A stretch of DNA of 64,000 nucleotides from NCBI GenBank assembly GCA_949752735.1, contig OX457053.1:26463797-26527796 (forward strand), written 5' to 3'. Both the position numbers and the translations under genes were made by a program. The stretch is from Lumbricus terrestris. Its lineage: Eukaryota > Annelida > Clitellata > Crassiclitellata > Lumbricidae. The first letter of the stretch is position 1. The number at the start of each line of letters is the position of its first letter. Positions 3,004 to 59,542 of the stretch are shown here, piece after piece. Below the pieces are notes generated by a model that saw only the letters and a program-made list of their open reading frames with translations, was not told the origin of the DNA and did not search any database.

Positions 3004-3143
3004 GAAGATGATGATATACTCAAGATCAATGATATACCAAAATCAATGGACAAAAGATCAATGATACACCAAAATCAATTATACACCAGAGATCATTTGA
3101 CCAGAGATCAATGGGTCAAAGATTAATGATAATACCAAAGACC

Positions 3144-3716
3144 TGGGACAACGACTGCAGTAAAGAGATAAGAAGAAGAATAGCGAAGGCAGCAGGGGCA
3201 ATGGTGGGCTTTGGGAACATTTGGAGAAGCCGTGAAATCAGCAAACAAACGAAAATGGGGATCATCAAAACCTGCGTATTTAGCATACTACTATATGCAT
3301 GTGAGACATGGACTCTACGGAAGCAGGACACAAGCAAACTCCTGGCATTTGAGATGAGATGTTATAGACGGATCTTGCGCATAAGATGGCAGCAGAAAAT
3401 AACAAACAAAGAGGTGCGTGAAAGAGTGGGAAGCAATAAAAGCATCGAACAAGTGATAATGGAGAGGAAGCTCAACTTTTTTGGACATGTGTGCCGAATG
3501 GACAGCAGCAGACTGGTGAAGCAAACTATGTTCGGGGTAATTGACGGCACTGGGGTCAGAGGGAGGCCAAGCAGGGAATGGCTGGACGACGTCAGAGACT
3601 GGTGTGGAATAGACGTACAAAAACTGAGCTGGCTGGCGCAAGAACGTGACAAATGGAGGATGATGGTGAAACATGCGATCGACACCAACGGGCATTGTGC
3701 CTATGGACTGAGATGA
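3144..3716 (+). CDS. C-terminal part of LINE reverse transcriptase (ORF2 remnant)
   Basis: About 190 intact codons encode the region after the polymerase core of an RTE/BovB-like ORF2. Landmarks are KTCVFSILLYACETWTL, the FEMRCYRRILRIRW block, LNFFGHVCRMD and a final WLDDVRDWCGID. The endonuclease and the YADD polymerase centre are missing, so it cannot be active. The frame is undamaged, which suggests a fairly recent insertion. The 11 codons from an upstream ATG at 3111 are host DNA, including the target duplication, and do not belong to the element. Confidence 0.8.
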   Translation, partial: WDNDCSKEIRRRIAKAAGAMVGFGNIWRSREISKQTKMGIIKTCVFSILLYACETWTLRKQDTSKLLAFEMRCYRRILRIRWQQKITNKEVRERVGSNKSIEQVIMERKLNFFGHVCRMDSSRLVKQTMFGVIDGTGVRGRPSREWLDDVRDWCGIDVQKLSWLAQERDKWRMMVKHAIDTNGHCAYGLR

Positions 3717-13596: not shown

Positions 13597-14480
13597 CCAT
13601 TAATGTTTCATCGAACTTCAATTTACACTTAAAGGCAAATCATGATTCATGAACTCACTACCAGGTACTTTCAATTTATGGGTCAACCCGAATCCCTGAT
13701 TACCGATTTCCTACAAGCGATTAATATGAAATATATAGAGAGTCTGTGAAAGCAATTTTACTAATTAAAAGGTTAATTAGTCGGAAATTAATTGGAGCAT
13801 TGGAATGGTAGTTTCAGGTGCCTTACAGCATCCTTATTTTACCTCATTCTAGTAGCGCATGATTTGATTTTTGCAACAACTTTCAATGATGCTAATGTTT
13901 CATCGAGCTTCAATTTACACTTAAAGGTAAATCATGATTCATGACCTCACTACCAGGTACTTTCAATTTATGGATCAACCCGAATCCCTGATTAATTACC
14001 CACATCCTACAAGCGATTAATGAGAAATATAAAGAGAGTCTGTGAAATCAATTTGACTAATTAAAAGGTTAATTAGTCGGAAATTAATTGGAGCATTGGA
14101 ATGGTAGTTTCGGGTGCCTTACAGCATCCTTATTTTACCTCATTCTAGTAGCGCATGATTTGATTTTTGCAACAACTTTCAATGATGCTAATGTTTCATC
14201 GAGCTTCAATTTACACTTAAAGGCAAATCATGATTCATGAACTCACTACCAGGTACTTTCAATTTATGGGTCAACCCGAATCCCAGATTACCGATTTCCT
14301 ACAAGTGATTAATGTGAAATATATAGAGAGTCTGTGAAAGCAATTTTACTAATTAAAAGGTTAATTAGTAAGAAATTAATTGGAGCATTGGAATGGCAGC
14401 TTCAGGTGCCTTACAGCATCCTTATTTCAACTCATTCTAGTAGTCCATGGTTTGATTTTTGCAACAACTTTCCGTGATGC
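13597..14480. repeat. Three tandem copies of a ~295-bp sequence
   Basis: AATGTTTCATCGA(A/G)CTTCAA starts near 13604, 13896 and 14190. Each copy also has CTACCAGGTACTTTCAATTT and GGTTAATTAGTCGGAAATTA in the same order. The third copy drifts at its end. No ORF; lies in the presumed first intron of the kinase gene. Confidence 0.85.
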
Positions 14481-17067: not shown

Positions 17068-18450
17068 CTTCATCATCCTCAGCAATCATGCACTAACAGG
17101 CTTCAACATCAACGGATATCATCGATCAAAAGTCTTCATCATCCACAGCTATCATGCACTAACAGGCTTCAACATCAATGGATATCATCGATCAAAAGTC
17201 TTCATCATCCACAGCTATCATGCACTAACAGGCTTCAACATCAATGGATATCATCGATCAAAAGTCTTCATCATCCACAGCTATCATGCACTAACAGCCT
17301 TTAACATCAACGGATATCATCGATCAAAAGTCTTCATCATCCACAGCTATCATACACTAACATCTTTCAACATCAATGGATATCATCGATCAAAAGTCTT
17401 CATCATCCACAGCTATCATACACTAACATCTTTCAACATCAATGGATATCATCGATCAAAAGTCTTCATCATCCACAGCTATCATGCACTAACAGGCTTC
17501 AACATCAATGGATATCATCGATCAAAAGTCTTCATCATCCACAGCTATCATACACTAACATCTTTCAACATCAATGGATATCATCCATCAAAAGTCTTCA
17601 TCATCCACAGCTATCATGCACTAACAGGCTTCAACATCAACGGATATCATCGATCAAAAGTCTTCATCATCCACAGCTATCATACACTAACATCTTTCAA
17701 CATCAATGGATATCATCCATCAAAAGTCTTCATCATCCACAGCTATCATGCACTAACAGGCTTCAACATCAACGGATATCATCGATCAAAAGTCTTCATC
17801 ATCCACAGCTATCATACACTAACATCTTTCAACATCAATGGATATCATCGATCAAAAGTCTTCATCATCCACAGCTATCATGCACTAACAGGCTTCAACA
17901 TCAACGGATATCATCGATCAAAAGTCGTCATCATCCACAGCTATCATGCACTAACAGGCTTCAACATCAACGGATATCATCGATCAAAAGTCGTCATCAT
18001 CCACAGCTATCATGCACTAACAGGCTTCAACATCAATGGATATCATCGATCAAAAGTCTTCATCATCCACAGCTATCATGCACTAACAGGCTTCAACATC
18101 AATGGATATCATCGATCAAAAGTCTTCATCATCCACAGCTATCATACACTAACATCTTTCAACATCAATGGATATCATCCATCAAAAGTCTTCATCATCC
18201 ACAGCTATCATGCACTAACAGGCTTCAACATCAACGGATATCATCGATCAAAAGTCGTCATCATCCACAGCTATCATACACTAACATCTTTCAACATCAA
18301 TGGATATCATCCATCAAAAGTCTTCATCATCCACAGCTATCATACACTAACATCTTTCAACATCAATGGATATCATCCATCAAAAGTCTTCATCATCCAC
18401 AGCTATCATGGATCAACAGCCTTTAACATCATTAGATATCATGGATCATC
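17068..18450. repeat. 66-bp tandem array, about 21 copies
   Basis: The unit holds TTCATCATCCACAGCTATCA, GCACTAACAGGCTTCAACAT and GGATATCATCGATCAAAAG. The block CTT(C/T)AACATC occurs at 17101 and again at 18421, exactly 20 x 66 bases later, so no net indel has accumulated. Two unit types (GCACTAACAGGC and ACACTAACATCT) alternate irregularly. One plus-strand frame is stop-free from 17060 to 18475 but has no ATG. Confidence 0.95.
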
Positions 18451-28984: not shown

Positions 28985-29935
28985 ACGTTTATAAAACGTT
29001 GATAGATGGTTTGCGGACTCGTTCGTGTAACGTTTGCTTAAAACGTTCAAAAAACGTTATTTTGGCCGTTCTTCTGACGTGTATAAAACGATTACAACTA
29101 ACGTTGAAAAAACGTTAAATCGATGTTAAAATAACGTTTATATAACGTTGATGAAACGATTTTTTAACGCTAGGTTAACGTTTGATCAAAACGTTCATAA
29201 AGCGTTATTTTGGCCGTTCTTCTGACGTTTATAAAACGAGTACAATTAACGTTTAAAAAACGTTAATTCTACGATAATATAACGTTTATATAAGGTTGAT
29301 GCAACGATTTTTTAACGCTAGGTTAACGTTTGATCAAAACGTTCATAAAGCGTTATTTTGGCCGTTCTTCTGACGTGTATAAAACGAGTACAATTAACGT
29401 TTAAAAAACGTTAATTCTACGATAATATAACGTTTATATAAGGTTGATGCAACGATTTTTTAACGCTAGGTTAACGTTTGATCAAAACGTTCATAAAGCG
29501 TTATTTTGGCCGTTCTTCTGACGTTTATAAAACGAGTACAATTAACGTTTAAAAAACGTTAATTCTACGATAATATAACGTTTATATAAGGTTGATGCAA
29601 CGATTTTTTAACGCAAGTTTAACGTTTGATCAAACGTTCATAAAGCGTTATTTTGGCCGTTCTTCTGACGTTTATAAAACGAGTACAATTAACGTTTAAA
29701 AAACGTTAATTCTATGATAATATAACGTTTATATAAGGTTGATGGAATGATGTTTTAACACTAGTTTAACGTTTGATCAAAACGTTCATAAAGCGTTATT
29801 TTGGCCGTTCTTCTGACGTTTATAAAACGAGTACAACTAACGTTAAAAAAGTCAATTCGATGATAATATAACGTTTATACAATGTGGAAGAAAACGATTC
29901 TTTCACATTAGGTTAACGTTTGATCAAAACGTTTA
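28985..29935. repeat. ~148-bp tandem repeats carrying AACGTT palindromes
   Basis: GGCCGTTCTTCTGACG recurs at about 29063, 29211, 29359, 29509, 29657 and 29801. Each unit has four or more AACGTT motifs spaced by A/T sequence. No coding potential. Confidence 0.9.
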
Positions 29936-42463: not shown

Positions 42464-42545
42464 AACTGTAGATGAGATAAACAGAGCGTAGGCCTATACA
42501 CGTCGTTATGCTTAGCCTAATTCTAATATGTCTTTATAATTGCAG

Positions 42546-43316
42546 ATTACAATAGCGTCAACCACTCTGGCGATCTGCTTAGTGCTCATCCAGATAGTCA
42601 ACGGATTGCCATCATCAACAAGGCAAACGAAGTCAGCAGCTTCCGATGGCTCCTCGGTACCTCCATCTCCTCCTTCCCATACGGCAGCAGCACCAGCCCA
42701 CCTGAAGCTTCAGCAGCAGCAGCAACTCAAGAGAGACCGCTCACTGACGCTTCCATTCATCCACTCCGACGAACGAGTCTTGATAAGCAACACCTGGCCA
42801 CTGGAACCACCGATGTCACTCAGCGACCTAACACTCAACGCCACTGGGACCGACAAGAGATCTCCCAGGTCGGCCAGGTCCCCCGATCGTCAACCGCTAG
42901 GGCGGCCGGTGATGAGGAGTTCGGGCAGCAGCAGCCGCGGCCTCGTGCCTGCCTGCGAGAGCGTCAGTGAGTGGGCACAGCTGACGGAGGTGGAGGACGC
43001 GTGGGAGAAGCGCGTCAGCGTCGTGCAAGACTTCGACAACGGAAGCGGACCTCGAGTCAAGCAGTATTTCTACGAGACGTACTGCCACCGCCCGGCCGGG
43101 GTCTCTTCGGCCGCCGATCGACCCCCGTCGTGCGTCGGGACCGACGCCACCAACTACGATTCGGTCTGCTTAGAGAAGTACGTCTACGTGTACGGCAAGG
43201 TCCGCTACGCCGGGGAGAGCGAGGAACGCTGGACCTACGTGAAGATCAGAGCGTCGTGTAACTGCGCCGTCAGCCGGAAGAGCAACAACGACCGCAGGTC
43301 ATATGTCAGAGGTTAA
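42546..43316 (+). CDS. NT: Neurotrophin exon 2: prepro-neurotrophin (secreted growth factor)
   Basis: The acceptor is CTTTATAATTGCAG. With the ATG of exon 1 the protein has 257 residues, close to NGF and BDNF (about 240-250). It shows a signal peptide (residues 2-21, ITIASTTLAICLVLIQIV), a glutamine-rich prodomain with an N-glycosylation site N99-A-T, furin-type sites RSPR and RSAR (ending at 109 and 112), and a mature part of about 145 residues. KQYFYETYC matches KQYFFETKC of NGF and RWTYVKIRASCNC matches the AWRFIRIDTACVC strand. The six knot cysteines are C138, C181, C197, C209, C239 and C241. Spacings are 43, 16, 12, 30 and 2, against 43, 10, 12, 28 and 2 in NGF, so the C2-C3 loop is six residues longer. 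The receptor would be Trk/p75-like. Another frame at 42971 is a shadow. Confidence 0.95.
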   Translation: MTIASTTLAICLVLIQIVNGLPSSTRQTKSAASDGSSVPPSPPSHTAAAPAHLKLQQQQQLKRDRSLTLPFIHSDERVLISNTWPLEPPMSLSDLTLNATGTDKRSPRSARSPDRQPLGRPVMRSSGSSSRGLVPACESVSEWAQLTEVEDAWEKRVSVVQDFDNGSGPRVKQYFYETYCHRPAGVSSAADRPPSCVGTDATNYDSVCLEKYVYVYGKVRYAGESEERWTYVKIRASCNCAVSRKSNNDRRSYVRG

Positions 43317-50106: not shown

Positions 50107-50181
50107 GGCTAATGCATCAAAATATTACATATGAATGTATTGCATGTATGTGTGTGGGTATGCATGTATTCTATGTATGTG
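50107..50181. repeat. Degenerate TATG microsatellite, left of the palindrome
   Basis: ATGTATTGCATGTATGTGTG-type sequence ending in TATGTG right at the palindrome's edge. It continues on the far side (59525-59542 and 61921-62085). Confidence 0.7.
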
Positions 50182-50760
50182 AGTAGTGGATATATAGACA
50201 GTTGAAACTCACCTTCCCCCAGTAATGAGTGACAGTTCTACCTCACATCCCCCACCCACACAGCTGTAAGATTTCTACCTCACCTAAAAATAGATCTATG
50301 ACGTCACTGAGTTAGTGGCGCAGCCACGCCCCCTGTCCAATGACAGTCCCGCCTTGTCACTTGATCTGTCAATCAATTCTGCGCAGTGGCGGGCTAGCCC
50401 ACAACCAATCAGAATCCAAGGCTGTGTGCGGTCATGTATAACATGGACTAATCCATGTGCGCCGGGCAGCCCCAGACCTAACTCCTATCCAATAAAAATC
50501 TTCACATGCAATTCTATCGCCGCAGGCACAGTCATGTCAATCCAATTATTGTCCGTGTCATTGTAAGCATTATGCACTGGCATCGGAAACCGTTGTCACA
50601 TGTGGTTTAAATATTAACAGTCTGTGCGGTATACTGTTGATTCTCTCTCAACCCCCCAGGCTAGATGCAAATCAAATTATGGTCCGTACCTTCATCGGAT
50701 GCTGACAATAATCACATGTGAAAGTATTTTCGGCAGCATGCAAAGAGAAAATAGTTCTAG
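50182..50760 (+). promoter_or_regulatory. Outer arm segment with promoter-like motifs, left
   Basis: A perfect CRE TGACGTCA (about 50298-50305), a CACGCCCCC box and three forward CCAAT boxes (GTCCAATGAC, AACCAATCAG, ATCCAATAAA) lie within 250 bases, all pointing inward. The mirror copy is at 58936-59524. An 83-codon frame is identical in both arms, which shows how similar they are; I do not think it is translated. Confidence 0.5.
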
Positions 50761-51368
50761 TATATACATGAGAAATTTATCTTAAGTGAAAATTCTTAAA
50801 TTTTCCAAAACAGCTTTATTGTATTGTAAGTAGTTACATAACCATATGTTTTGGCTCACATGCATAAAAAATTTATCTTAAGTGAAAATTCTTAAATTTT
50901 TCAAAAGAGCTTTATTGTAAGTAGTTACATAACCATATGTTTTGGCTCACTTGCATAAAAAATTTATCTTAAGTGAAAATTCTTAAATTTTTCAAAAGAG
51001 CTTTATTGTAAGTAGTTGCATAACCACATGTTTTGGCTCACATGCATAAAAAAAAATTATCTTAAGTGAAAATTCTTAAATTTTTCAAAAGAGCTTTATT
51101 GTAAGTAGTTGCATAACCATATGTTTTGGCTCACTTGCATGAAAAATGTTGCAGGTGCATTCGATTTTTCAAAAGTCTTTAATTTAAGTAGTTGTACAAA
51201 CGCATGGATTGGATCACTTGCATGAAAAAGTTATCATAAGTGAAAATTCTTAAATTTTCCTAAACAGCTTTATTGTAAGTAGTTGCATAACCACATGTTT
51301 TGGCTCACATGCATAAAAAAATTTATCTTAAGTGAAAATTCTTAAATTTTTCAAAAGAGCTTTATTGT
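50761..51368. repeat. ~93-bp tandem array, left arm (about 7 copies)
   Basis: CTTAAGTGAAAATTCTTAAA begins units at 50781, 50877, 50968, 51061, 51234 (diverged neighbour before it) and 51327. Each also has AGCTTTATTGTAAGTAGTT and ATGTTTTGGCTCAC. Confidence 0.92.
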
Positions 51369-51369
51369 A

Positions 51370-51570
51370 CAAAATCCGCAGCGGGTGGCGGGCATGTGCT
51401 AGCGTTGGCGGCGGCGGCAGCAATGGACTAGCATGGGCTAGCATGGGTGGCGGCGGCAGCAATGGGCTAGCATGGGCGGCGGCGGCAGCCAAGGGCTAGC
51501 GTGGGCTAACCCCTGTGCGGCGGCAGCAATGGGCTAGCATGGACTAACCCCTGTGCCACAGTGGCAGGCC
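51370..51570. repeat. GCTAGC/GGCGGCGGCAGC minisatellite, left arm
   Basis: GC-rich repeats of GGCGGCGGCAGCAATGGGCT and AGCATGGG type in an otherwise A/T-rich arm. Mirrored at 58045-58245. Confidence 0.9.
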
Positions 51571-51584
51571 TGAGATATCCAACT

Positions 51585-54500
51585 TACCATGCAATTTCTA
51601 CAATTCCATACCAACTTACTTACTTATTCACAAAATTTCAGCAATTCAACAGCTTTACACGCGCACGTACATGGTCATATTTCTCATTTCTTCAAACCTG
51701 CAGTTCTTAATACTTGCATCTTTCAAATTATTATCCATGCAAATTCCACAATTTCATACCAACTTACTTTACTTTCTTGTAAAATTTCATCACTTCAACA
51801 CCTTCAGTCCTTAATACTTGCATCTTTCAACTTCTCAACCGCACAAATTCCACAATTTCATACCAACTTACTTACTTAATCACAAAATTTCAGCACTTCA
51901 ACAGCTTTACATGTGCACATACATGGTCATATTTCCATTTCTTCAATCCTCCAATTCTTAATACTTACATCTTTCAAATTCTCAACCATGCAAATTCGAC
52001 AATTTCATACCAACTTACTTACTTATTCACAAAAGTTCAACAATTCAACAACTTTACACATGCACATGCATGGTCATATTTCTTCAAACCGTCAGTTCTT
52101 AATACTTGCATCTTTCAAATTCTCAACCGTACAAATTCAACAATTTCATACCAACTTACATACTTATTCACAAAGTTTCAGCAATTCAGCAGCTTTACAC
52201 GTGCGCATACCTGGTCATATTTCTCATTTCTTCAAACCGTCAGTTCTTAATACTTGCATCTTTCAAATTCTCAACCGTGCAAAGTCCACAATTTCATACC
52301 AACTTACTTACTTATTCACAAAATTTCAGCACTTCAACAGCTTTACATGTGCACATACATGGTCATATTTCCATTTCTTCAATCCTCCAATTCTTAATAC
52401 TTGCATCTTTCAAATTCTCAACCATGCAAATTCGACAATTTCATACCAACTTACTTACTTATTCACAAAAGTTCAACAATTCAACAACTTTAGACATGCA
52501 CATGCATGGTCATATTTCTTCAAATCATCAGTTCTTAATACTTGCATCTTTCAAATTCTCAACCGTGCAAATTCAACAATTTCATACCAACTTACATATT
52601 TATTCACAAAGTTTCAGCAATTCAGCAGCTTTAACGTGCGCATACCTGGTCATATTTCTCATTTCTTCAAACCGTCAGTTCTTAATACTTGCATCTTTCA
52701 AATTCTCAACCGTGCAAAGTCCACAATTTCATACCAACTTACTTACTTATTCACAAAATTTCAGCACTTCAACAGCTTTACATGTGCACATACATGGTCA
52801 TATTTCCATTTCTTCAATCCTCCAATTCTTAATACTTACATCTTTCAAATTCTCAACCATGCAAATTCGACAATTTCATACCAACTTACTTACTTATTCA
52901 CAAAAGTTCAACAATTCAACAACTTTACACATGCACATGCATGGTCATATTTCTTCAAATCATCAGTTCTTAATACTTGCATCTTTCAAATTCTCAACCG
53001 TGCAAATTCAACAATTTCATACCAACTTACATATTTATTCACAAAGTTTCAGCAATTCAGCAGCTTTGCACGTGCGCATACCTGGTCATATTTCTCATTT
53101 CTTCAAACCGTCAGTTCTTAATACTTGCATCTTTCAAATTCTCAACCGTGCAAAGTCCACAATTTCATACCAACTTACTTACTTATTCACAAAATTTCAG
53201 CACTTCAACAGCTTTACATGTGCACATACCTGGTCATATTTCCATTTCTTCAATCCTCCAATTCTTAATACTTGCATCTTTCAAATTCTCAACCATGCAA
53301 ATTCGCCAATTTCATACCAACTTACTTACTTATTCACAAAAGTTCAACAATTCAACAACTTTACACATGCACATGCATGGTCATATTTCTTCAAATCATC
53401 AGTTCTTAATACTTGCATCTTTCAAATTCTCAACCGTGCAAATTTAACAATTTCATACCAACTTACATATTTATTCACAAAGTTTCAGCAATTCAGCAGC
53501 TTTACATGTGCACATACATGGTCATATTTCCAGTTCTTCAACCCTCCAATTCTTAATACTTGCATCTTTCGAATTCTCAATCATGCAAATTCAACAATTT
53601 CATACCAACTTACTTACTTATTCACAAAAGTTCAACAATTCAACAGCTTTACACATGCACATGCATGGTCATATTTCTTCAAATCGTCAGTTCTTAATAC
53701 TTGCATCTTTCAAATTCTCAACCACGCAAATTCGACAATTTCATACCAACTTACTTACTTATTCACAAAAGTTCAACAATTCAACAACTTTACACATGCA
53801 CATGCATGGTCATATTTCTTCAAATCGTCAGTTCTTAATACATGCATCTTTCAAATTCTCAACCGTGCAAATTCAACAATTTCATACCAACTTACTTACT
53901 TATTCACAAAAGTTCAACAATTCAACAACTTTACACATGCACATGCATGGTCATATTTCTTCAAATCGTCAGTTCTTAATACTTGCATCTTTCAAATTCT
54001 CAACCGTGCAAATTCAACAATTTCATACCAACCTACTTACTTATTCACAAAAGTTCAACAATTCAACAACTTTACACACGCACATGCATGGGCATATTTC
54101 TTCAAATCGTCAGTTCTTAATACTTGCATCTTTCAAATTCTCAACCGGTCAAATTCAACAATTTCATACCAACTTACATATTTATTCACAAAGTTTCAAC
54201 AATTCAGCAGCTTTACATGTGCACATACATGGACATATTTCCAGTTCTTCAACCCTCCAATTCTTAATACTTGCATCTTTCGAATTCTCAACCATGCAAA
54301 TTCGACAATTTCATACCAACTTACTTACTTATTCACAAAAGTTCAACAATTCAACAACTTTACACATGCACATGCATGGTCATATTTCTTCAAATCGTCA
54401 GTTCTTAATACTTGCATCTTTCAAATTCTCAACCGTGCAAATTCAACAATTTCATACCAACTTACTTATTTATTCACAAAGTTTCAGCAATTCAGCAGCT

Positions 54501-55160
54501 TTACATGTGCACATACATGGTCATATTTCCAGTTCTTCAACCCTCCAATTCTTAATACTTGCATCTTTCAAATTCTTAACCGTGCAAAGTCCACAATTTC
54601 ATACCAACTTACATATTTATTCACAAAGTTTCAGCAATTCAGCAGCTTTACATGTGCACATACATGGTCATATTTCCAGTTCTTCAACCCTCCAATTCTT
54701 AATACTTGCATATTTCGAATTCTCAACCGTGCAAATTCAACAATTTCATGCCAACTTACTTACTTATTCACAAAAGTTCAACAATTCAACAGCTTTACAC
54801 ATGCACATGCATGGTCATATTTCTTCAAACCTACAGTTCTTAATACTTGCATCTTTCAAATTCTCAACCGTGCAAATTCAACAATTTCATACCAACTTAC
54901 ATACTTATTCACAAAGTTTCAGCAATTCAGCAGCTTTACACGTGCGCATACATACATGGTCATATTTCTCATTTCTTCAAACCGACAGTTCTTAATACTT
55001 GCATCTTTCAAATTCTCAACTGTGCAAAGTCCACAATTTCATACCAACTTACTTACTTATTCACAAAATTTCAGCAATTCAACAACTTTACATATACACT
55101 ATCCTGCACCTATCTGTCATTTCTTCAATCCATCAATTCTTCATATTGACATCTTTCATC
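51585..55160. repeat. ~145-bp tandem array, left arm (about 24 copies)
   Basis: Units start GTTCTTAATACTTGCATCTT and contain ACAATTTCATACCAACTTAC, TTATTCACAAA and GCACATACATGGTCATATTT. Three unit types (about 149, 145 and 140 bases) tend to alternate as a ~435-bp higher-order unit, e.g. starts at 52096, 52245, 52390 and 52530. The strand is poor in G, so very long stop-free frames (up to 1061 codons) occur. Confidence 0.93.
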
Positions 55161-55409
55161 ATGTCAACGTTAGAAACTCTACAATTTCTCACATTCTTAC
55201 TTACTTATTCACAAAAATGTCTACATACCAAAGTTTTACACAAGTACAAGCATGCAATTGTTATTCATTTCTGCACTTCTTCAGTTCTTAATACTTGCAT
55301 CTTTCAACATCTCAAACATGCAAATTCTGAAATTCCATACATACTTACTTACTCTCAAAATTTTTGCAATTCAATTGCTTTTCAATTGTAAATGCTTGCA
55401 CATATTTCT

Positions 55410-55630
55410 CATCTCTTGATTCTTACGATTTTCAACATCTCAAGCTCATCATTCTACAATTTCTCAGCTACTTGCTTACTCACTGCATAGAAAAAGACAG
55501 AAAATGCTTGAACATAGAATATTTGTGAAGAAAATTTTATGAACATGGAGAAAATTTTGGAACTTCGAAACTTTCGAAACTTTCGGTGTCAGAAATGGTA
55601 TGGACTTAGAAACTTTGCGAAGAAAAATGT
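55410..55630. other. Spacer (loop) of the giant palindrome
   Basis: 221 bases not shared by the two arms. It contains GAAACTTTCGAAACTTTCGG. It has no gene-like content and would be the loop of a transcript or single strand folding on the arms. Confidence 0.8.
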
Positions 55631-55889
55631 AGAAATATGTGCAAGCTTGTACAATTGAAAAGCAATTGAATTGCAAAAATTTTGAGAGTAAGTAAGTATG
55701 CATGGAATTTCAGAATTTGCATGTTTGAGATGTTGAAAGATGCAAGTATTAAGAACTGAAGAAGTGCAGAAATGAATGACAATTGCATGCTTGTACTTGT
55801 GTAAAACTTTGGTATGTAGACATTTTTGTGAATAAGTAAGTAAGAATGTGAGAAATTGTAGAGTTTCAAACGTTGACATGATGAAAGAT

Positions 55890-58035
55890 GTCAATATGAA
55901 GAACTGATGGATTGAAGAAATGACAGATAGGTGCAGGATAGTGTATATGTAAAGTTGTTGAATTGCTGAAATTTTGTGAATAAGTAAGTAAGTTGGTATG
56001 AAATTGTGGACTTTGCACAGTTGAGAATTTGAAAGATCCAAGTATTAAGAACTGTCGGTTTGAAGAAATGAGAAATATGACCATGTATGTATGCGCACGT
56101 GTAAAGCTGCTGAATTGCTGAAACCTTGTGAATAAATATGTAAGTTGGTATGAAATTGTTGAATTTGCACGGTTGAGAATTTGAAAGATGCAAGTATTAA
56201 GAACTGATGATTTGAAGAAATATGACCATGCATGTGCATGTGTAAAGTTGTTGAATTGTTGAACTTTTGTGAATAAGTAAGTAAGTTGGTATGAAATTGT
56301 CGAATTTGCATGGTTGAGAATTTGAAAGATGCAAGTATTAAGAATTGGAGGGTTGAAGAAATGGAAATATGACCATGTATGTGCACATGTAAAGCTGTTG
56401 AAGTGCTGAAATTTTGTGAATAAGTAAGTAAGTTGGTATGAAATTGTGGACTTTGCACGGTTAAGAATTTGAAAGATGCAAGTATTAAGAACTGACGGTT
56501 TGAAGAAATGAGAAATATGACCAGGTATGCGCACGTGTAAAGCTGCTGAATTGCTGAAACTTTGTGAATAAATATGTAAGTTGGTATGAAATTGTGGACT
56601 TTGCACGGTTAAGAATTTGAAAGATGCAAGTATTAAGAACTGACGGTTTGAAGAAATGAGAAATATGACCAGGTATGCGCACGTGTAAAGCTGCTGAATT
56701 GTTGAACTTTTGTGAATAAGTAAGTAAGTTGGTATGAAATTGTCGAATTTGCATGGTTGAGAATTTGAAAGATGCAAGTATTAAGAATTGGAGGATTGAA
56801 GAAATGGAAATATGACCATGTATGTGCACATGTAAAGCTGTTGAATTGTTGAACTTTTGTGAATAAGTAAGTAAGTTGGTATGAAATTGTTGAATTTGCA
56901 TGATTGAGAATTCGAAAGATGCAAGTATTAAGAATTGGAGGGTTGAAGAACTGGAAATATGCCCATGTATGTGCACGTGTAAAGCTGCTGAATTGCTGAA
57001 ACTTTGTGAATAAATATGTAAGTTGGTATGAAATTGTTGAATTTGCACGGTTGAGAATTTGAAAGATGCAAGTATTAAGAACTGATGATTTGAAGAAATA
57101 TGACTATGCATGTGCATGTGTAAAGTTGTTGAATTGTTGAACTTTTGTGAATAAGTAAGTAAGTTGGTATGAAATTGTCGAATTTGCATGGTTGAGAATT
57201 TGAAAGATGCAAGTATTAAGAATTGGAGGATTGAAGAAATGGAAATATGACCATGTATGTGCACATGTAAAGCTGTTGAAGTGCTGAAATTTTGTGAATA
57301 AGTAAGTAAGTTGGTATGAAATTGTGGACTTTGCACGGTTGAGAATTTGAAAGATGCAAGTATTAAGAACTGACGGTTTGAAGAAATGAGAAATATGACC
57401 AGGTATGCGCACGTGTAAAGCTGCTGAATTGCTGAAACTTTGTGAATAAGTATGTAAGTTGGTATGAAATTGTTGAATTTGTACGGTTGAGAATTTGAAA
57501 GATGCAAGTATTAAGAACTGACGGTTTGAAGAAATATGACCATGCATGTGCATGTGTAAAGTTGTTGAATTGTTGAACTTTTGTGAATAAGTAAGTAAGT
57601 TGGTATGAAATTGTCGAATTTGCATGGTTGAGAATTTGAAAGATGTAAGTATTAAGAATTGGAGGATTGAAGAAATGGAAATATGACCATGTGTGTGCAC
57701 ATGTAAAGCTGTTGAAGTGCTGAAATTTTGTGATTAAGTAAGTAAGTTGGTATGAAATTGTGGAATTTGTGCGGTTGAGAAGTTGAAAGATGCAAGTATT
57801 AAGGACTGAAGGTGTTGAAGTGATGAAATTTTACAAGAAAGTAAAGTAAGTTGGTATGAAATTGTGGAATTTGCATGGATAATAATTTGAAAGATGCAAG
57901 TATTAAGAACTGCAGGTTTGAAGAAATGAGAAATATGACCATGTACGTGCGCGTGTAAAGCTGTTGAATTGCTGAAATTTTGTGAATAAGTAAGTAAGTT
58001 GGTATGGAATTGTAGAAATTGCATGGTAAGTTGGA
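55890..58035. repeat. ~145-bp tandem array, right arm (about 15 copies)
   Basis: Inverted counterpart of the left array (AAGATGCAAGTATTAAGAAC, GTAAGTTGGTATGAAATTGT), with fewer units. The long frames are now on the minus strand. Confidence 0.93.
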
Positions 58036-58044
58036 TATCTCAGG

Positions 58045-58245
58045 CCTGCCACTGTGGCACAGGGGTTAGTCCATGCTAGCCCATTGCTGCCGCCGCACAG
58101 GGGTTAGCCCACGCTAGCCCTTGGCTGCCGCCGCCGCCCATGCTAGCCCATTGCTGCCGCCGCCACCCATGCTAGCCCATGCTAGTCCATTGCTGCCGCC
58201 GCCGCCAACGCTAGCACATGCCCGCCACCCGCTGCGGATTTTGTA
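58045..58245. repeat. GCTAGC/GCCGCCGCC minisatellite, right arm
   Basis: Mirror of 51370-51570 with the same order of variants. Confidence 0.9.
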
Positions 58246-58249
58246 CAAT

Positions 58250-58935
58250 AAAGCTCTTTTGAAAAATTTAAGAATTTTCACTTAAGATAAATTTTTTTAT
58301 GCATGTGAGCCAAAACATGTGGTTATGCAACTACTTACAATAAAGCTGTTTAGGAAAATTTAAGAATTTTCACTTATGATAACTTTTTCATGCAAGTGAT
58401 CCAATCCATGCGTTTGTACAACTACTTAAATTAAAGACTTTTGAAAAATCGAATGCACCTGCAACATTTTTCATGCAAGTGAGCCAAAACATATGGTTAT
58501 GCAACTACTTACAATAAAGCTCTTTTGAAAAATTTAAGAATTTTCACTTAAGATAATTTTTTTTTATGCATGTGAGCCAAAACATGTGGTTATGCAACTA
58601 CTTACAATAAAGCTCTTTTGAAAAATTTAAGAATTTTCACTTAAGATAATTTTTTTTTATGCATGTGAGCCAAAACATGTGGTTATGCAACTACTTACAA
58701 TAAAGCTCTTTTGAAAAATTTAAGAATTTTCACTTAAGATAAATTTTTTATGCAAGTGAGCCAAAACATATGGTTATGTAACTACTTACAATAAAGCTCT
58801 TTTGAAAAATTTAAGAATTTTCACTTAAGATAAATTTTTTATGCATGTGAGCCAAAACATATGGTTATGTAACTACTTACAATACAATAAAGCTGTTTTG
58901 GAAAATTTAAGAATTTTCACTTAAGATAAATTTCT
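58250..58935. repeat. ~93-bp tandem array, right arm (about 8 copies)
   Basis: Mirror of the left array with one additional unit: two successive copies share the AAAAAAAATTAT variant found once on the left. Confidence 0.9.
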
Positions 58936-59524
58936 CATGTATATACTAGAACTATTTTCTCTTTGCATGCTGCCGAAAATACTTTCACATGTGATTATTG
59001 TCAGCATCCGATGAAGGTACGGACCATAATTTGATTTGCATCTAGCCTGGGGGGTTGAGAGAGAATCAACAGTATACCGCACAGACTGTTAATATTTAAA
59101 CCACATGTGACAACGGTTTCCGATGCCAGTGCATAATGCTTACAATGACACGGACAATAATTGGATTGACATGACTGTGCCTGCGGCGATAGAATTGCAT
59201 GTGAAGATTTTTATTGGATAGGAGTTAGGTCTGGGGCTGCCCGGCGCACATGGATTAGTCCATGTTATACATGACCGCACACAGCCTTGGATTCTGATTG
59301 GTTGTGGGCTAGCCCGCCACTGCGCAGAATTGATTGACAGATCAAGTGACAAGGCGGGACTGTCATTGGACAGGGGGCGTGGCTGCGCCACTAACTCAGT
59401 GACGTCATAGATCTATTTTTAGGTGAGGTAGAAATCTTACAGCTGTGTGGGTGGGGGATGTGAGGTAGAACTGTCACTCATTACTGGGGGAAGGTGAGTT
59501 TCAACTGTCTATATATCCACTACT
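58936..59524 (-). promoter_or_regulatory. Outer arm segment with promoter-like motifs, right
   Basis: Inverted copy of 50182-50760: CRE TGACGTCA at about 59400, GGGGGCGTG, and three CCAAT boxes on the minus strand, directed inward toward the spacer. Confidence 0.5.
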
Positions 59525-59542
59525 TATGTGCATGTATATATG

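What the first reader, a model, noticed from the sequence alone, without database searches (positions are those of the whole stretch)
50182..59524. Giant palindrome with three-layer tandem-repeat arms and no protein of its own
Two inverted arms of 5.2 and 3.9 kb surround a 221-bp spacer, in the order outer segment, ~93-bp array, GC-rich GCTAGC minisatellite, ~145-bp array, each mirrored. Ordinary transposons, satellites or segmental duplications do not look like this. It resembles a fold-back element in the style of the sea urchin TU elements (modular inverted repeats made of tandem units), but with other sequences and a different target duplication length. Any transcript would fold into a kilobase-scale hairpin.
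Basis: partly seen in the sequence, partly recalled or inferred. Interest (0 to 1): 0.88.

Follow-up and report, generated by a model that had tools for sequence, protein, structure and literature searches.

The report
Giant palindromic Polinton segment without genes
In what its mitochondrial gene shows to be an earthworm genome, this 9.3-kb mirror-image DNA element has the ends and the 6-bp target duplication of a virus-like Polinton transposon but no Polinton gene, and it is likely copied and inserted by Polinton proteins that the same genome carries on separate elements with matching ends.

Summary
The palindrome is real and one of a dispersed family: a 24-base terminal motif has 183 matches genome-wide (up to 3 mismatches) against 5 for a control. 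All 19 elements whose two ends were read have an exact 6-bp target duplication (5 in simple repeats); 18 of 19 end in (AGT)2//(ACT)2, the published Maverick/Polinton end motif.

Elements with such ends carry Polinton genes. Some hold DNA polymerase B and a PC4-like gene (10.3 kb). Others hold capsid, protease, integrase and packaging ATPase but no polymerase (9.4 kb). One of each shares 300 identical terminal bases and nothing inside. Of 60 scored polymerase loci, none lies within 100 kb of a scored integrase or capsid locus; 79 of 93 scored capsid loci have an integrase within 10 kb.

So the window element is a gene-less fold-back member of what looks like a gene-split Polinton. Arms evolve in concert from the terminus inward, as copying one arm from the other during fold-back replication would give (inferred). 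The split genome is the most novel part; the gene lists are partial, so it needs an exhaustive survey.

The parts
50176..50181 (.). left target-site duplication TATGTG
   Evidence: exact 6-bp repeat with 59525-59530
50182..55409 (+). left arm of the fold-back element
50182..50187 (+). terminal AGTAGT, the Maverick/Polinton (AGT)2 end motif
   Evidence: at all 22 ends of the 11 copies; motif published in PMC8097293
50197..50213 (+). terminal box 1, direct-repeat motif GACAGTTGAAACTCACC
   Evidence: changes in step with boxes 2 and 3 across end types (coordinates)
50231..50247 (+). terminal box 2 (GACAGTTCTACCTCACA)
50270..50284 (+). terminal box 3 (GATTTCTACCTCACC)
50182..50771 (+). left outer segment, shared with Polinton gene-bearing elements (first 120 bp identical to the PolB element C7:42.75M)
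50773..51369 (+). left 91-93-bp tandem array
   Evidence: the same unit lies in the terminal repeats of the capsid/integrase element C5:22.46M
51379..51561 (+). left GC-rich GCTAGC minisatellite, only in this copy among the 10 fold-backs read
   Evidence: partial 82% match in L054
51586..55409 (+). left 141-148-bp tandem array
   Evidence: 5 units also lie inside a capsid-gene element, L058
55410..55630 (.). central spacer (hairpin loop); with 50-bp flanks it is 88-96% alike in eight other places
55631..59524 (-). right arm
55628..58027 (-). right 141-148-bp array
58052..58234 (-). right GC-rich minisatellite
58244..58933 (-). right 91-93-bp array, one unit longer than the left
58935..59524 (-). 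right outer segment, identical to the left
59422..59436 (-). terminal box 3, right
   Evidence: mirror of the left
59459..59475 (-). terminal box 2, right
   Evidence: mirror of the left
59493..59509 (-). terminal box 1, right
   Evidence: mirror of the left
59525..59530 (.). right target-site duplication TATGTG

Best explanation
This is a gene-less fold-back mobile element with the ends and the 6-bp target duplication of a Polinton (Maverick), and it is likely copied by a Polinton protein-primed DNA polymerase and inserted by a Polinton integrase, both likely supplied by other elements of this genome with the same kind of ends. Shown: a dispersed family, perfect 6-bp duplications, ends shared with gene-bearing Polinton elements, and arms that evolve together within each copy. 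Inferred: (1) priming at the terminal AGTAGT, where the repeated triplet would allow jumping-back as in adenovirus; (2) recognition of the three terminal boxes by a Polinton protein; (3) equalising of the arms when a displaced single strand folds back and one arm is copied from the other, starting at the terminus; (4) integration by the chromodomain integrase at sites close to NAYRTN. The helper genes look split. One class of element carries PolB with a PC4-like gene, the other carries capsid proteins, protease, packaging ATPase and integrase. Functionally the palindrome would be a copy-back defective segment of a gene-split Polinton.
For: Family: 183 motif matches (81 + 102) against 5 for the reversed control; the 100 listed give 37 inward-facing pairs about 5.9-11.8 kb long, median 9.1 kb, and 26 unpaired ends. 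Target duplication: exact 6 bp in 19 of 19 elements with both ends read, 14 of them outside simple repeats; A at position 2 in 17 of 19. End motif and TSD match published Mavericks. Genes between such ends: rve integrase + Chromo, Pox_A32-type ATPase, DJR-like capsid (weak Pfam match), DNA_pol_B_2, PC4; adenovirus-type protease. Window outer 120 bp = 100% the PolB element C7; C2:20.59M outer 240 bp = 100% the capsid/integrase element C5 while most of its interior is 98-100% the palindrome C8, with a stretch at 90-96%. Concerted arms: 0 arm-shared sites in 12 of 12 copy pairs against 4-160 concerted sites; arms 95-100% identical per 300 bp from the terminus for 1.8 kb or more in 8 of 9 fold-backs profiled. 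Split: INT within 10 kb of 79 of 93 scored MCP loci; PolB within 100 kb of a scored INT or MCP in 0 of 60. Shared ends with different genes: left ends 100% over 300 bp. Both halves are under purifying selection, pN/pS 0.10-0.20 between lineages.
Against: No transposition, replication or transcript was observed. The gene lists are partial: 60 PolB loci of 1451 candidates, 114 INT of 3463 and 93 MCP of 910 were scored, the nearest to my queries, so a one-piece helper Polinton of a more diverged lineage is not excluded. Two of 11 copies (C12, C5) have outer arms under 90% identical because of indels. In the window copy the fall of arm identity is graded (94-98% from 2.4 to 3.3 kb), not one sharp step. 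Fourteen of 93 MCP loci have no scored INT nearby, and 35 of 114 INT loci no scored MCP. The right end of C1:84.16M matches C5 at only 87.5% over 441 columns, with gaps. The boxes are not perfectly in step: box 2 of type B and box 3 of the C12 left arm each differ by a base. Five target duplications lie in simple repeats. One lineage (C18:31.95M) ends AGTAGA, not AGTAGT. Synonymous sites are near saturation. Chromosomal gene conversion could also equalise arms.
Confidence: 0.82

Rival explanations
1. Polintons here are ordinary one-piece elements; the PolB-only and capsid/integrase-only elements and the palindromes are all independent deletion derivatives, rescued by one-piece helpers that my lists missed.
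For: Canonical Mavericks are one piece of 12.7-24.6 kb. Only the nearest candidates were scored. A deletion derivative with a truncated integrase exists (L058).
Against: Two diverged PolB lineages (77-86% identity; C7 and C1 against C9) and two diverged capsid/integrase lineages (87% MCP, 79% INT; C5 against C18:31.95M) show the same split in five elements read end to end, save an unread middle of C1 that the PolB match covers in large part. 0 of 60 PolB loci are within 100 kb of a scored INT or MCP. Matches without a stop: PolB 48 of 61, MCP 85 of 93, INT 106 of 114, under purifying selection. No listed terminus pair exceeds 11.8 kb.
Confidence: 0.3
2. Arm identity comes from gene conversion between arms in the chromosome, after insertion, rather than from fold-back copying during replication.
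For: Palindrome arms are known to convert (recalled). Identity runs to the core in C4, C2a, C8 and C18.
Against: The near-identical tract starts at the terminus in 9 of 9 copies profiled and runs inward without a break for 1.8 kb or more in 8 of 9. It includes the end-type boxes, which are exchanged between bodies on both arms at once. Random conversion should give scattered tracts (inferred).
Confidence: 0.3
3. A fold-back transposon of the FB/TU/Galileo type, mobilised by a cut-and-paste transposase and unrelated to Polintons.
For: Long modular inverted repeats with tandem units; no gene found inside.
Against: Ends, duplication length and the outer sequence itself are shared with gene-bearing Polinton elements. 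Pfam recognised no other transposase among the nine ORFs and ORF pieces of C5 and C7 scanned.
Confidence: 0.05
4. A locus co-opted by the host: its long hairpin RNA feeds small RNAs that silence Polintons.
For: A transcript would pair over kilobases and share sequence with Polinton ends.
Against: Dozens of dispersed copies, with their own target duplications where read, look like mobile DNA, not one host locus. No RNA data were available.
Confidence: 0.1
5. Assembly artefact (false inverted duplication).
For: Large palindromes are a known artefact of long-read chimeras (recalled).
Against: Same structure at many sites, each with its own target duplication where read; arms of this copy differ in array length; flanks are not mirrored.
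Confidence: 0.02

Closest known systems
Polinton/Maverick (adintovirus-like) transposons
   Same: (AGT)2//(ACT)2 ends, 6-bp target duplication, inverted terminal repeats; such ends bound PolB, rve integrase with chromodomain, packaging ATPase, DJR-like capsid and adenovirus-type protease genes
   Different: The window copy has no Polinton gene and is a near-complete palindrome of tandem arrays. In the elements read, the helper genes lie on separate elements rather than in one 12.7-24.6-kb element.
Bidnaviridae (bipartite, Polinton-derived PolB)
   Same: Two segments, a conserved terminal structure, different genes and protein-primed PolB (PMC4061559, abstract and passages)
   Different: Bidnaviruses have ssDNA and a parvovirus-type capsid; here the capsid, integrase and ATPase are of Polinton type and the segments sit in chromosomes.
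Snap-back / copy-back defective-interfering virus genomes (adenovirus, parvovirus; recalled)
   Same: Palindromes that keep the origin ends, have lost the genes and would be copied by a helper
   Different: Found as chromosomal insertions with target duplications and with large tandem arrays in the arms.
Sea urchin TU elements, Drosophila FB and Galileo (recalled; Galileo seen only in listing PMC3573991)
   Same: Modular long inverted repeats with tandem subunits
   Different: Other ends and duplication length (8-9 bp recalled for FB/TU); no kinship to Polinton ends known to me.

Membership tests
Polinton/Maverick | 5'-(AGT)2 // (ACT)2-3' (or AG-repeat) end motif | tested here: met
   Window and 17 of the other 18 elements with both ends read; C18:31.95M ends AGTAGA
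Polinton/Maverick | 6-bp target-site duplication | tested here: met
   TATGTG at the window element; 19 of 19 elements, 5 of them in simple repeats
Polinton/Maverick | encodes protein-primed PolB and retroviral-type integrase | tested here: not met
   No hit of 13 Polinton queries in the window. So it is a non-autonomous relative; the genes lie in other elements with shared ends
Polinton/Maverick | terminal sequence shared with gene-bearing members | tested here: met
   Outer 120 bp identical to PolB element C7:42.75M
Polinton/Maverick | single element of 12.7-24.6 kb with both gene modules | tested here: not met
   Modules on separate elements of 9.4-12.5 kb in the 5 gene-bearing elements read end to end or nearly so; 0 of 60 scored PolB loci near a scored INT or MCP; lists partial
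Fold-back (FB/TU) elements | long inverted repeats built of tandem units | tested here: met
Fold-back (FB/TU) elements | 8-9-bp target duplication (recalled) | tested here: not met
   6 bp in 19 of 19; a longer repeat is seen only in simple repeats
Bidnaviridae | two segments with common ends and different genes | tested here: met
   C5:22.46M and C1:84.16M left ends: 300 identical bases, 97.7% over 441, nothing inside; C1 right end 87.5% with gaps
Bidnaviridae | parvovirus-type capsid and superfamily 3 helicase | not tested
   No search was made; the capsid found is DJR-like
Copy-back defective-interfering genome | replicates only with a helper | not testable with these tools
   Needs experiment
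Satellite DNA array | head-to-tail array without mobile-element ends | tested here: not met
   Arrays are bounded by Polinton-type ends and target duplications; whether array units also occur elsewhere was not searched

The most novel reading that the evidence does not exclude
A multipartite Polinton: an animal virus-like DNA transposon whose replication gene (PolB) and whose capsid, packaging and integration genes travel as separately inserted chromosomal segments held together only by common, co-evolving ends, accompanied by giant gene-less palindromes that behave as defective-interfering segments and whose arms are rewritten from one another each time they are copied.
Probability: 0.55. Interest if true: 0.93.

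Novelty: new variant of a known kind. Interest (0 to 1): 0.84.

Why it matters
Polintons are placed at the core of the evolution of adenoviruses and large DNA viruses (PMC6431247, passages), and the vertebrate Mavericks described in PMC8097293 carry replication, capsid and integration genes in one element. A genome where these modules live on separate segments with common ends would be a segmented form of a Polinton and would make the origin of multipartite DNA viruses testable with chromosomal copies. The palindromes give a natural record of what may be fold-back copying: arms alike within a copy and different between copies. The end boxes that change in step offer a direct way to find the protein that reads them. 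In ten searches of the held library, judged by listings and by passages of six papers, I saw no palindromic non-autonomous and no gene-split Polinton; subscription papers and Repbase entries are not covered.

Tried and rejected
Rfam and tRNA scans of the window: nothing. Viral-contig scans for the terminal 20-mer, the 93-bp unit and the capsid protein: no relative found. A made-up terminal pattern: no match, not used. A loose fuzzy regular expression for ends gave false places and was replaced (then). PDB sequence search with the capsid ORF: no match; with the PolB piece: only a FYVE finger, so PolB rests on the Pfam match DNA_pol_B_2; the second PolB lineage has no such Pfam match of its own and rests on 77-86% identity to the first. 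The Pfam HTH_38 hit on array read-through is taken as spurious. Satellite, assembly artefact and TU/FB kinship were considered and rejected for the reasons given under rivals. No empty-site search was made. The quartet counts for the window copy include misaligned array columns, because its arms differ by one 93-bp unit; this raises its within-copy differences (37-49 sites where 1,100 bp were compared, 0 where 600 bp were) and no arm-shared site arose. The first look's caps mean that all genome counts are lower bounds. A 5-kb piece after a third PolB lineage (C11:37.59M, 60% identity) showed no other Polinton gene; the rest of that element was not read.

Full report
OBSERVATION. Two arms, 50182-55409 and 55631-59524, flank a 221-bp spacer. 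Each arm runs outer segment, 91-93-bp array, GCTAGC minisatellite, 141-148-bp array. From the terminus to 52632 the left arm differs from the right by one 93-bp unit and three substitutions; further in, the arrays differ in number and sequence. An exact TATGTG flanks both ends. Thirteen Polinton protein queries have no tblastn hit in the window.

HOST. The genome has 1.056 Gb in 331 contigs. A 900-base piece of mitochondrial COX1 matches earthworms best (Amynthas sp. 97%, Pontoscolex 97%, Eisenia 96%, best 120 of 7,996 listed).

A MOBILE FAMILY. The outer 589 bp found 55 matches, pieces included, among which I count 17 facing pairs about 6-10 kb long (40 of 226 candidates scored). The end of the window's own type gives 13 matches and 0 for the control: six complete pairs and one single that runs into Ns. 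A 24-base motif shared by the end types gives 183 matches (up to 3 mismatches) against 5 for the control; the 100 listed give 37 pairs, about 5.9-11.8 kb long, median 9.1 kb, and 26 unpaired. Part or all of the window's core occurs in at least nine listed pairs that were not fetched. In 19 of 19 elements with both ends read there is an exact 6-bp direct repeat at the ends; seven of these were read by eye from the printed flanks. Five lie in simple repeats and weigh little. Position 2 is A in 17 of 19, position 3 is Y in 17 and position 4 is R in 18, so the target is close to NAYRTN, a palindromic preference.

KINSHIP. Published vertebrate Mavericks have 5'-(AGT)2//(ACT)2-3' ends most commonly, 6-bp duplications, terminal repeats of 46-1,447 bp and a size of 12.7-24.6 kb; the repeated triplet is thought to allow jumping-back in protein-primed replication (PMC8097293, passages and section 7). 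The family here has those ends and that duplication. Of 12 copies read end to end (window, ten, L051), ten are fold-backs (C12 only loosely) and two hold genes. C7:42.75M holds a 1,112-aa ORF with DNA_pol_B_2 and a PC4-like ORF, and no capsid, integrase or ATPase match. C5:22.46M holds an rve integrase with chromodomain, a Pox_A32-type ATPase, a capsid-like ORF (weak DJR match, E 0.0038), an adenovirus-type protease (79% to that of L058) and a RING protein, and no PolB match. The capsid ORF has 3,499 homologues among 7,994 scored, the best at 93%; none of the 120 listed bears a functional name. The window's outer 120 bp is identical to C7's end.

GENE SPLIT. C1:84.16M (10,361 bp, TSD GACGAT) holds PolB and the PC4-like ORF, with no other Polinton gene in its two fetched end pieces, and has the same end type as C5:22.46M. 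Their left ends are 100% identical over the outer 300 bp, 97.7% over 441 bp, and unrelated inside; the right end of C1 matches at 87.5% with gaps. C9:40.63M (12,507 bp, TSD GACGTC) is a second PolB lineage, 77-86% identical, with no hit of the other 11 gene queries. C18:31.95M (about 9.4 kb, TSD GATGGA) is a second capsid lineage with RING, ATPase, integrase, penton-like ORFs, capsid and protease, and no PolB. L058 is a 6.6-kb derivative with capsid genes, protease, an integrase tail and five 145-bp units, which ties the arrays to gene-bearing elements. Genome lists: 60 PolB loci (of 1451 candidates), 93 MCP (of 910), 114 INT (of 3463). INT lies within 10 kb of 79 of 93 MCP loci, median 3.2 kb; no PolB locus is within 100 kb of a listed INT or MCP locus, the nearest being 101.5 kb. 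Of the 37 terminus pairs, 7 hold a listed MCP, 2 a listed PolB, none both, 28 neither. Both halves are conserved by selection: pN/pS 0.20 and 0.10 for the two parts of PolB, 0.10 for MCP, 0.17 for INT, 0.12 for ATPase, with synonymous sites near saturation. Matches without a stop: PolB 48 of 61, MCP 85 of 93, INT 106 of 114. Twelve MCP copies are 98-100% identical, so spread is recent. These lists hold the nearest candidates only; a diverged one-piece Polinton is not excluded.

CONCERTED ARMS. Within a copy the outer 620 bp of the arms are at least 97% identical in 9 of 11 copies; C12 (78%) and C5 (87%) have indels. Between copies the same stretch is 76-99% identical. In 12 of 12 pairs of copies tested, no site is shared by like arms of two copies, while 4 to 160 sites are alike within copies and different between them. 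Inward profiles per 300 bp show 95-100% identity from the terminus for about 1.8 kb in C2b, 2.4 kb in C15a, 3 kb in C15b, and to the core in C4, C2a, C8 and C18; beyond that C15a has one window at 96% before falling to 80%, and the others fall to 87% or less. The window copy is 99-100% to 2.4 kb, 94-98% to 3.3 kb, then 81% and less; C12 keeps identity for 300 bp only. Copying of one arm from the other, starting at the end, explains this; terminal-repeat repair in adenovirus is the model (recalled). Conversion in the chromosome is the rival.

END TYPES. Three short direct repeats in the outer 105 bp change in step: GACAGTT in boxes 1 and 2 of type A, GAGAGTT in both of type B, AACAGTT in both of C8, AAGAGTT in both of C18. 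The CTACCTCACC half changes likewise in boxes 1 to 3, save for one base in box 2 of type B and one in box 3 of the C12 left arm. C2:20.59M has type B ends, identical to C5 for 240 bp, on a body mostly 98-100% identical to C8, with a stretch at 90-96%. So bodies change ends. A protein that reads the boxes and sets which helper serves which segment is the simplest reading (inferred).

MECHANISM. Shown: family, ends, duplications, shared termini, concerted arms, exchange of ends. Inferred: protein-primed copying by PolB, fold-back equalising, integrase insertion, dependence on helpers. Untested: expression, particles, mobility, small RNA, empty sites.

NOVELTY. In ten searches of the held library I saw no palindromic non-autonomous and no gene-split Polinton (listings and abstract starts, with passages read in PMC6431247, PMC12220804, PMC8097293, PMC11071296, PMC11071308 and PMC4061559). 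The closest precedent for a split is Bidnaviridae, bipartite with a Polinton-derived PolB (PMC4061559, abstract and passages).

Noticed in passing
42540-43316: ORF with a nerve growth factor (neurotrophin) domain, PF00243, E 7e-20; closest unnamed homologues at 63% identity.
   Followed up: partly
17068-18448: 66-bp tandem array of about 21 copies that stays open as a 472-aa frame.
   Followed up: no
29028-29933: 148-bp array of 6 copies rich in AACGTT motifs.
   Followed up: no
13601-14480: 296-bp array of 3 copies, 92% matches.
   Followed up: no
3033-3713: ORF that looks like a LINE reverse-transcriptase tail (recalled), with a DUF6451 match below cut-off.
   Followed up: no
L044:5101-5851: Remnant of two Polinton gene ORFs 54 bp outside the palindrome at C15:26.66M, so one Polinton piece lies beside another.
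   Followed up: no
L058:2569-9199: Capsid-gene element with a truncated integrase and five 145-bp units. Its capsid belongs to a large group of 441-aa ORFs at 91-93% identity to the C5 capsid, many of which do have an integrase about 3.2 kb away.
   Followed up: partly
L060:2219-2915: Extra internal copy of the 700-bp terminal repeat inside the PolB element at C9:40.63M.
   Followed up: no
L031/L032 (C4:5.24M), centre: Nearly perfect 8.8-kb palindrome whose loop of about 110 bases appears to be a second copy of the innermost arm sequence, read by eye.
   Followed up: partly
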